DNA of 64,000 nucleotides from contig JAFGMR010000079.1 in assembly GCA_016927425.1 (NCBI GenBank), positions 1-64,000 of the forward strand. Reading direction: 5' to 3'. This document shows, piece after piece, positions 29,336 through 30,842 of this stretch (positions are counted from its first letter, which is position 1; the number at the start of each line of letters is the position of its first letter). Both the position numbers and the translations under genes were made by a program. The stretch is from Methanotrichaceae archaeon. GTDB taxonomy: Archaea > Halobacteriota > Methanosarcinia > Methanotrichales > Methanotrichaceae. The notes beneath the pieces are model-generated. The model was given only the letters and a program-made list of their open reading frames with translations. It was not told the DNA's origin and made no database searches.

Positions 29336-29344
29336 CTTATAATC
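29336..29344 (+). promoter_or_regulatory. TATA box of the TIR-like gene
   Basis: CTTATAATC is centred about 32 bases upstream of the ATG at 29372, consistent with a nearly leaderless transcript. Confidence 0.5.
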
Positions 29345-29371: not shown

Positions 29372-29926
29372 ATGATAGCCCAGGTATACATTAGTCATGA
29401 TCCCCAGGATGAGCACCTGGCAAGGGAGTTGTCCGCCCTTCTCTGGCGGGTGGGGCTTCTGAGCATCAGATCGATGAATCGAGAGCCAGAGGCCATCTCC
29501 CGTTCGGAACGGGTGACTTATGCAATACGCAACTCCGAGTGCTTCGTCCCGATCGTCACCGCCAATGGATCCGTATCCAGAACGATCTGCCAGGAGATCG
29601 GGTATGCCCGCGGCCTGGAACGGCTGATCATTCCCCTCCAAGAGGAGGGGGCAGAGCTTCCCTTCCTCATCTCCCATTTGAGGCCGGTGACGTTTTCCGA
29701 GTTCGAGGAGGCGGAGGCGATCCTCGTTCGAGTTTTGAGGGATCTCACCAGGCTGGAGTGGCTGAAGGTTGTGTGTCCTGCGTGCAGTGAGGAGATGACG
29801 CAGTACCTCACACCCCAGCAGGAGGTGGACTCTGCTATTCTCCATGGATCCACCCTTGAGACGATATGCACCTACTGCGAGAGGAACATCTCTCTCGATC
29901 CGCGCACGTTTCGCCCGGGGGCCTGA
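29372..29926 (+). CDS. TIR-like domain protein with C-terminal zinc ribbon
   Basis: A 184-residue protein. It opens with a TIR-like strand (AQVYISHDPQDEHLARELSALL) and has NSECFVPIVTANGS followed by SRTICQEIGYARG. The Ser-x3-Cys-x-Glu pattern matches the catalytic glutamate region of TIR NAD-hydrolases. Residues about 130-175 carry two CxxC pairs (CPACSEE and CTYCER), probably a zinc ribbon. TIR proteins serve in archaeal and bacterial defence or NAD cleavage. No defence partner lies beside it, so its role is open. It has its own TATA box. Confidence 0.7.
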   Translation: MIAQVYISHDPQDEHLARELSALLWRVGLLSIRSMNREPEAISRSERVTYAIRNSECFVPIVTANGSVSRTICQEIGYARGLERLIIPLQEEGAELPFLISHLRPVTFSEFEEAEAILVRVLRDLTRLEWLKVVCPACSEEMTQYLTPQQEVDSAILHGSTLETICTYCERNISLDPRTFRPGA

Positions 29927-30008: not shown

Positions 30009-30842
30009 ATGAACGGGCGAAGCGAGAGGGCCATTCTGATTCCGTCCTCCTATACCATGGAGTCCGCGGATCTACGCGTTCGGACGCTCAAGGTTGGCCT
30101 GATCGCCAGAGCCGCGGCAGTCTTCAGGATGGATCGGGTCGTGATCTATCGAGATCGCGAGCAGAACGATACCCGGTTTATGAGCCTGGTCTTGCGGTAT
30201 GCGGAGACCCCGCAGTACCTGCGAAAGATGCTCTTTCCGAGGATGAGAGAGCTCTCCCAGGTTGGAGTGCTGCCGCCTCTGAGGACCGCCCATCATCCTG
30301 TGAACTCAGAGAGCACAACGCTCAGAGTTGGCGAGTTCAGAGTCGGAGCAGTCGTCGAAGGCGTCGGATCTGATGGCGGCGCATGGGTGGAAATCGGTAT
30401 CGATCGCCCAGTGCCTCTGCGAACCGAGAATGAGGTTCGACCGGGGCAGCGCCTCAACGTCAGAATCTTTTCGCTGAGCCCGCTCGCCGCTGAGCAAGTG
30501 GATCAAAGTGAGATCCCCGGCTATTGGGGCTACCAGACGGTATCGGTGGAGAGCGCTGAAGAGTACCTGCGCTCCTGGAACCCACTGGTAGTGGCTACAT
30601 CCCGAAAGGGACGTATGCTGACTCCGGATCTGCTGGAGCAGATAGAGCGATCCAGCAAGCGAGGCCTTGCGGTTGTCTTTGGCTCCCCATCAAGAGGCGT
30701 TGATGCGTTCTTGAGTCGAGATATGCTGGAGAGATGTTGCATGATCAACACCATTCCGCATCAGGGGACTGAGACGGTTCGGGTCGAGGAGGCGGTTATG
30801 GCCACCTTGGCGCTGCTCAACTTGGTGCGTGTGGAGGAGTAA
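30009..30842 (+). CDS. SPOUT-class RNA methyltransferase (COG2106 family)
   Basis: A 277-residue protein of the archaeal COG2106 family, regularly found just before the L3 gene. A SPOUT fold (about 5-80 and 180-277) is interrupted by an OB-type insertion (about 85-165). The knot-forming segments are VVFGSPSRGVDAF and MINTIPHQGTETVRVEEAVMATLALLN. A role in rRNA uridine methylation is suggested by family relatives. It heads the ribosomal operon, and one TAA ends it directly before the L3 ATG. Confidence 0.85.
   Translation: MNGRSERAILIPSSYTMESADLRVRTLKVGLIARAAAVFRMDRVVIYRDREQNDTRFMSLVLRYAETPQYLRKMLFPRMRELSQVGVLPPLRTAHHPVNSESTTLRVGEFRVGAVVEGVGSDGGAWVEIGIDRPVPLRTENEVRPGQRLNVRIFSLSPLAAEQVDQSEIPGYWGYQTVSVESAEEYLRSWNPLVVATSRKGRMLTPDLLEQIERSSKRGLAVVFGSPSRGVDAFLSRDMLERCCMINTIPHQGTETVRVEEAVMATLALLNLVRVEE

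What the first reader, a model, noticed from the sequence alone, without database searches (positions are those of the whole stretch)
29372..29926. TIR-like domain joined to a zinc ribbon, no obvious defence partner
The SRTICQEIGYARG segment keeps the Cys-x-Glu pattern of TIR NADases, and two CxxC pairs form a probable zinc ribbon. Archaeal TIR proteins are little studied. The gene stands alone with its own TATA box, upstream of the ribosomal operon.
Basis: partly seen in the sequence, partly recalled or inferred. Interest (0 to 1): 0.58.

Follow-up and report, generated by a model that had tools for sequence, protein, structure and literature searches.

The report
Core archaeal TIR–zinc-ribbon protein
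This gene encodes an immune-type (TIR) enzyme fold joined to a zinc-binding domain which, unlike most such genes, looks like an ordinary inherited housekeeping gene of methane-making archaea and their salt-loving cousins, so these archaea may use a TIR enzyme for everyday physiology rather than only for virus defence.

Summary
Window 29372-29926 (+) encodes 184 aa: a TIR domain (Pfam TIR_2 34.9 bits, cutoff 28; AlphaFold2 pLDDT 92.3; best matches SPARTA TIR-APAZ Z 17.6, SARM1 Z 14.7) followed by a C-x2-C...C-x2-C zinc ribbon. The candidate catalytic Glu (E75, aligned to AbTir E208) is invariant in 82 of 82 distinct methanogen proteins; all four Cys are kept in 81 of 82.

It is in 45 of 50 Methanotrichaceae-like genomes, 50 of 111 Methanosarcinaceae-like, and as a distant full-length homologue in 104 of 125 genomes of a haloarchaeal family. 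It is mostly single-copy, compatible with vertical descent, under purifying selection and beside housekeeping genes. Most likely it is a NAD-cleaving TIR enzyme, or a relative with altered chemistry, controlled by the zinc ribbon, serving core physiology rather than mobile defence. Catalysis, zinc binding and role are inferred. Methanogen copies lack the Trp of WxxxE (0 of 82); haloarchaeal copies keep it (17 of 17).

The parts
29336..29343 (+). TATA-like element CTTATAAT about 30 bp before the ATG (short-leader transcript inferred)
   Evidence: sequence; by eye only, no statistical test
29372..29926 (+). gene for TIR-zinc-ribbon protein, 184 aa
29372..29752 (+). TIR domain, residues about 1-127
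   Evidence: Pfam TIR_2 residues 5-115; AlphaFold2 model; VIA-align model residues 1-132
29594..29596 (+). codon of Glu75, candidate catalytic glutamate
   Evidence: invariant in 82 of 82 methanogen and 17 of 17 haloarchaeal distinct proteins; aligned to the AbTir Glu after WTNY
29753..29923 (+). C-terminal zinc-ribbon domain, residues about 128-184
   Evidence: alignment A3; model pLDDT 87.3; zinc binding not tested
29774..29785 (+). first CxxC (Cys135, Cys138)
   Evidence: 82 of 82 each
29867..29878 (+). second CxxC (Cys166, Cys169)
   Evidence: 82 and 81 of 82
30009..30842 (+). neighbour: SPOUT/DUF171 putative RNA methyltransferase, first gene before uL3; this order is kept in 15 of 33 f1 loci

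Best explanation
A lineage-core, chromosomal TIR enzyme of Methanotrichaceae/Methanosarcinaceae with a distant full-length homologue in haloarchaea. The N-terminal TIR domain most likely cleaves the N-glycosidic bond of NAD+ or a related nucleotide with Glu75. The C-terminal zinc ribbon, kept even more strictly than the TIR part, most likely serves as the regulatory or docking element that decides when the TIR domain assembles and acts (sensing redox state, metal or a protein partner). Because the gene is mostly single-copy, compatible with vertical descent and sits among housekeeping genes, its normal job is probably core physiology or stress signalling rather than a mobile anti-virus module. 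Shown: fold prediction, invariant Glu and Cys, full-length co-conservation of the two domains, distribution, purifying selection, no recurrent defence neighbour in the flanks examined. Inferred: catalysis, substrate, zinc binding, the regulatory role of the ribbon, the physiological role.
For: TIR fold: (44 of 44 members match TIR_2). Glu75 invariant 82/82 and 17/17 and aligned with the AbTir Glu of WTNYE; the literature names AbTir E208 as catalytic (PMC10022894 passages), and the match of numbering is my own count along the chain. Zinc ribbon. The two domains go together: profile-profile match of methanogen and haloarchaeal families over 178 columns including the ribbon, E 3.9e-18 for that pair. 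Core distribution: 45/50 f1, 50/111 f3, 104/125 f24. Tree: f3 one clade 99/97; f1 as one clade not rejected, p-AU 0.42. dN/dS median 0.24 over 195 pairs. Gene GC 0.582, GC3 0.723, like its neighbours. Haloarchaeal copies sit beside histidinol-phosphate transaminase, adenylate kinase, an MBF1-like regulator and tpiA. No match in phage records or, for the methanogen family, in viral contigs or plasmids.
Against: No activity is known. The Trp of WxxxE, a ligand-binding residue in SARM1 (PMC7075850 passage), is absent in 82 of 82 methanogen proteins, so chemistry may differ or be lost. E75 is present in over 70% of all TIRs and does not always track activity (PMC7075850). In Methanosarcinaceae-like genomes the gene is below threshold in 61 of 111, so it is dispensable there. 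No partner or effector was identified. One haloarchaeal copy lies on a 987-kb replicon recorded as a plasmid.
Confidence: 0.5

Rival explanations
1. A fixed, stand-alone abortive-infection (suicide) defence protein: the zinc ribbon senses infection and the TIR domain then destroys NAD+.
For: Closest folds are defence TIRs (SPARTA); weak ThsB profile matches (E 3.9e-5 best); patchy in Methanosarcinaceae-like genomes (50 of 111) with fragmentary copies.
Against: Near-universal and mostly single-copy in f1 and f24, conserved place among housekeeping genes in haloarchaea, no defence gene noticed among the neighbour clusters, purifying selection, no copies in the phage records or, for the methanogen family, viral contigs and plasmids.
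Confidence: 0.22
2. A non-catalytic TIR scaffold: the TIR domain only mediates self-association, the ribbon recruits a partner.
For: Trp of WxxxE missing in all 82 methanogen proteins; a conserved Glu does not prove activity (PMC7075850).
Against: E75 and G77 invariant 82/82, and the haloarchaeal family keeps W71-xxx-E75 in 17/17.
Confidence: 0.18
3. An NAD-RNA cap-removing (deNAMing) enzyme that the ribbon brings to RNA, linked to translation (gene next to the ribosomal operon).
For: Archaeal TcpA and several bacterial TIRs remove nicotinamide from NAD-RNA (PMC10937652, sections 12-13); NAD-RNAs exist in archaea and none of the four S. acidocaldarius Nudix proteins removed the NAD cap (PMC10663502 passages); weak S27e resemblance of the ribbon (Z about 3).
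Against: Ribbon and TIR parts are net negative (median -3.5 and -4 over 44), while deNAMing TIRs were reported to be positive near the active site (PMC10937652); the ribosomal location is kept in only 15 of 33 f1 and 0 of 11 f3 loci.
Confidence: 0.07
4. A nucleotide N-glycosidase of the DNPH1/MilB type rather than an NADase.
For: MilB and DNPH1 structures match almost as well (Z 14.7 and 14.5); 15 of 44 members match Nuc_deoxyrib_tr, best E 4.2e-4.
Against: TIR_2 matches all 44 members, best E 3e-14; SPARTA TIRs score highest (Z 17.6).
Confidence: 0.05

Closest known systems
TIR-APAZ subunit of SPARTA (short prokaryotic Argonaute system)
   Same: Best structural match of the TIR domain (Z 17.6, rmsd 1.9 over 126 residues); NAD(P)+-hydrolysing TIR (abstract start of PMC11156904 in the search listing)
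   Different: No APAZ; no Argonaute gene noticed among the window neighbours; zinc ribbon instead; core gene
ThsB of Thoeris
   Same: TIR fold; weak profile matches (E 3.9e-5); the haloarchaeal profile matches a ThsB entry that also lacks Trp at the -4 position
   Different: No ThsA-like gene noticed beside it; different C-terminal domain; only weak similarity
TcpO and TcpA, archaeal TIR NADases (PMC10022894, PMC10937652)
   Same: Archaeal TIR proteins with a catalytic Glu
   Different: TcpO-TIR is residues 204-341 of a longer protein (PMC10022894 passage); no zinc ribbon is mentioned for either in the passages read; their sequences were not compared here
AbTir / SARM1 TIR NADases
   Same: Fold (SARM1 Z 14.7); catalytic Glu aligned with AbTir
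   Different: WxxxE Trp absent in methanogen copies, present in haloarchaeal copies
Haloarchaeal 'TIR domain-containing protein', e.g. QCC61526.1 of Natrinema thermotolerans
   Same: The haloarchaeal family has the same two-domain architecture over the full length, invariant Glu, four Cys
   Different: First knuckle C-x4-C instead of C-x2-C; Trp71 kept; neighbours tpiA and MBF1-like instead of the ribosomal operon

Membership tests
TIR domain (Pfam TIR_2 PF13676) | profile score above gathering cutoff | tested here: met
   34.9 bits against 28
TIR domain (Pfam TIR_2 PF13676) | TIR fold | tested here: met
   model pLDDT 92.3, pTM 0.86; many solved TIRs at Z 14-17
TIR NADase | catalytic Glu at the AbTir E208 / SARM1 position | tested here: met
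   E75 invariant 82/82, aligned to the AbTir Glu
TIR NADase | Trp of the WxxxE motif (in AbTir and SARM1; not universal, so not used as a veto) | tested here: not met
   0 of 82 methanogen proteins, though 17 of 17 haloarchaeal ones have it
TIR NADase | NAD+ cleavage | not testable with these tools
   needs an enzyme assay
Zinc ribbon | two Cys pairs on beta-hairpin knuckles | tested here: met
   Cys 82, 82, 82, 81 of 82; predicted E6-10, E17-21, H25-34, E38-41, E48-51
Zinc ribbon | binds zinc | not testable with these tools
   needs a metal assay
Zinc ribbon | match to a curated zinc-ribbon family above cutoff | tested here: inconclusive
   for the window protein only sub-cutoff hits (zf-C4pol 17.4 bits against 28.9); Zn_ribbon_3 at best E 0.0025 in 26 of 44 members
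Thoeris (ThsB) | ThsA partner gene | tested here: inconclusive
   no ThsA-like neighbour noticed; STALD PF18185 in 0 of 50 family genomes, but the control genomes were silent too
SPARTA | APAZ domain fused to the TIR | tested here: not met
   protein ends after the ribbon at 184 aa
Mobile defence gene | patchy distribution, defence-island or mobile context | tested here: not met
   near-universal in f1 and f24, housekeeping neighbours; patchy only in f3

The most novel reading that the evidence does not exclude
An ancient, domesticated TIR enzyme: inherited since before the split of these methanogens and the haloarchaea, it makes an NAD-derived signal, or tunes NAD or NAD-capped RNA, in normal archaeal physiology under control of a zinc-ribbon sensor. 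It would be a housekeeping TIR outside immunity.
Probability: 0.3. Interest if true: 0.75.

Novelty: new variant of a known kind. Interest (0 to 1): 0.5.

Why it matters
Prokaryotic TIR enzymes are known mainly as patchy immune weapons (recalled general knowledge). A mostly single-copy TIR gene fixed in Methanothrix-type methanogens, with a full-length counterpart in a large haloarchaeal family, suggests a TIR enzyme in everyday archaeal physiology and gives a defined protein family to test that. Natural variation (Trp71 kept in haloarchaea, lost in methanogens) offers a built-in experiment on TIR catalysis, and haloarchaea and Methanosarcina are genetically tractable.

Tried and rejected
Stray defence gene: rejected as the leading reading because of the near-universal, mostly single-copy distribution compatible with vertical descent. 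Thoeris membership: weak ThsB profile hits only, no partner seen. The STALD search found 0 of 50, but its control genomes were silent too, so it proves nothing. RNA-binding ribbon: acidic net charge speaks against it; Foldseek with the ribbon alone gave no match at E<=0.001 and VIA-align at best Z 4.0 (LysW), about 3 for S27e, inconclusive. The first PDB row for the A1 profile (engineered CTPR repeat) is a repeat artefact. Trp71 as a requirement: not used as a veto, because a ThsB entry aligned lacks it too. Transfer into Methanosarcinaceae from a Methanothrix relative, as the best tree draws it when rooted on the distant haloarchaea, is not established: p-AU 0.42 for one f1 clade. A full-length-looking hit in a genome of family f7 (L161, 43 bits) is a different protein with TIR, CxxC pairs and hydrophobic segments. 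The first genome-contig scan with the single protein found nothing; the alignment found 69 relatives. One partial TIR hit in viral contigs for the haloarchaeal profile. Columns after about 110 are shifted by two against the window; one search corrects this. Phyla other than the window's were covered only by the motif-based scans, so distant relatives elsewhere are not excluded. Papers: PMC10937652 outline/abstract and sections 12 and 13 read; passages of PMC7075850, PMC10663502, PMC10022894 and PMC12259885; the rest only as search listings. Searches for earlier reports showed no paper that describes this family; the library holds only open-licence papers.

Full report
OBSERVATION. The window holds an ORF at 29372-29926 (+), 184 aa. 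Pfam TIR_2 matches residues 5-115 at E 2.4e-8, 34.9 bits against a cutoff of 28; all 44 aligned family members match TIR_2. The second half carries CPAC and CTYC. Upstream lies a class II aldolase gene and downstream a SPOUT/DUF171 RNA methyltransferase (Pfam), then uL3 (named by recall from the translation). The gene has the base composition of its neighbours (GC 0.582). A TATA-like CTTATAAT sits about 30 bp before the ATG (by eye).

FOLD. AlphaFold2 on the 44-sequence alignment gives pLDDT 92.3, pTM 0.86. Against the PDB the TIR part matches SPARTA TIR-APAZ (Z 17.6, rmsd 1.9 over 126), Hydra TRR-2 (15.2), SARM1 (14.7), and also MilB (14.7) and DNPH1 (14.5). The C-terminal domain alone folds at pLDDT 87.3 as two beta hairpins with a helix between; its fold matches are weak (LysW Z 4.0, S27e about 3; no Foldseek match at E<=0.001).

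CONSERVED SITES. Over 82 distinct methanogen proteins from the loci in hand, Glu75 is invariant, the four Cys are kept in 82, 82, 82 and 81, and the ribbon residues W130, E140, T143, Q144, Y145 and L162 in 82. The profile aligns Glu75 with the Glu of AbTir WTNYE; the literature calls E208 of AbTir catalytic (PMC10022894 passages), and that the two are the same residue is my count along the chain. Position 71, Trp in AbTir, is never Trp in the 82; in 17 haloarchaeal proteins it is always Trp. Mean majority frequency is higher in the ribbon (0.747) than in the TIR part (0.656); dN/dS has median 0.24 over 195 pairs.

DISTRIBUTION. In the window's class (237 genomes) full-length strong matches occur only in two families, f1 and f3. 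In f1, 45 of 50 genomes have a strong match, 32 of the 33 that are at least 90% complete and at most 5% contaminated (the 33rd, G004, has fragments); I counted these from the table with the f1 list. In f3, 50 of 111 at E<=1e-20, with split or fragmentary copies in several genomes. In the phylum sample (392 genomes) and a haloarchaeal class sample (67 of 292 at E<=1e-8) the methanogen profile finds full-length homologues mainly in one family, f24; with their own profile, 104 of 125 f24 genomes. One named copy is from Natrinema thermotolerans (Natrialbaceae), so f24 is probably Natrialbaceae (inference). The two families' profiles align over 178 columns including the ribbon, E 3.9e-18 for the pair. 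No match for the window protein in phage records or plasmids, none for the profile in viral contigs; for the haloarchaeal profile one partial viral hit; for a haloarchaeal protein two plasmid records, one of them a 987-kb replicon.

INHERITANCE AND CONTEXT. In the methanogen-only tree f3 is one clade (99/97); in the tree with haloarchaea the Methanothrix-type rows as one clade are not in the best tree but are not rejected (p-AU 0.42). The SPOUT-uL3 order follows the gene in 15 of 33 f1 loci and 0 of 11 f3 loci. In haloarchaea it sits with an aminotransferase (annotated histidinol-phosphate transaminase), adenylate kinase, CDP-alcohol phosphatidyltransferase, an MBF1-like regulator, tpiA, a J-domain gene and ornithine cyclodeaminase. 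I noticed no recurrent defence gene among the neighbour clusters (most of these were judged by recurrence and by eye, only ten proteins were annotated by Pfam). The window's genome has two further TIR_2 matches, on another contig.

INTERPRETATION. The best reading is a core TIR enzyme with a zinc-ribbon control element. Catalysis is inferred from Glu75; the missing Trp in methanogens is the main doubt. The core role is inferred from distribution and context; its patchiness in Methanosarcinaceae shows that it is dispensable there. The NAD-RNA rival has literature support for TIRs in general (PMC10937652 sections 12-13; PMC10663502 passages) but the acidic ribbon argues against it.

NOVELTY. TIR domains and archaeal TIR NADases are known; a TIR-zinc-ribbon family fixed as a core gene in these lineages was not found described in the searches listed, which cover open-licence papers only. 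I rate it a new variant of a known kind.

Noticed in passing
G000 contig C3:1706-2656 (outside the window; L139, L140): Two stronger TIR_2 matches (91.8 and 63.1 bits) close together on another contig of the same genome, in long open frames; possible TIR defence genes.
   Followed up: no
L161:1941-3197: In a genome of family f7: a 419-residue open frame with TIR, two CxxC pairs and hydrophobic segments; a different TIR plus ribbon-like pairing.
   Followed up: partly
G214, G193, G151, G153, G148: Split or fragmentary copies of the gene in Methanosarcinaceae-like genomes, some matching only the last 23 residues, suggesting decay.
   Followed up: no
L144:4578-4940 (haloarchaeal locus): A 121-aa protein with no Pfam match between tpiA and the TIR gene, recurring in 5 of 14 haloarchaeal loci; possible partner.
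   Followed up: no
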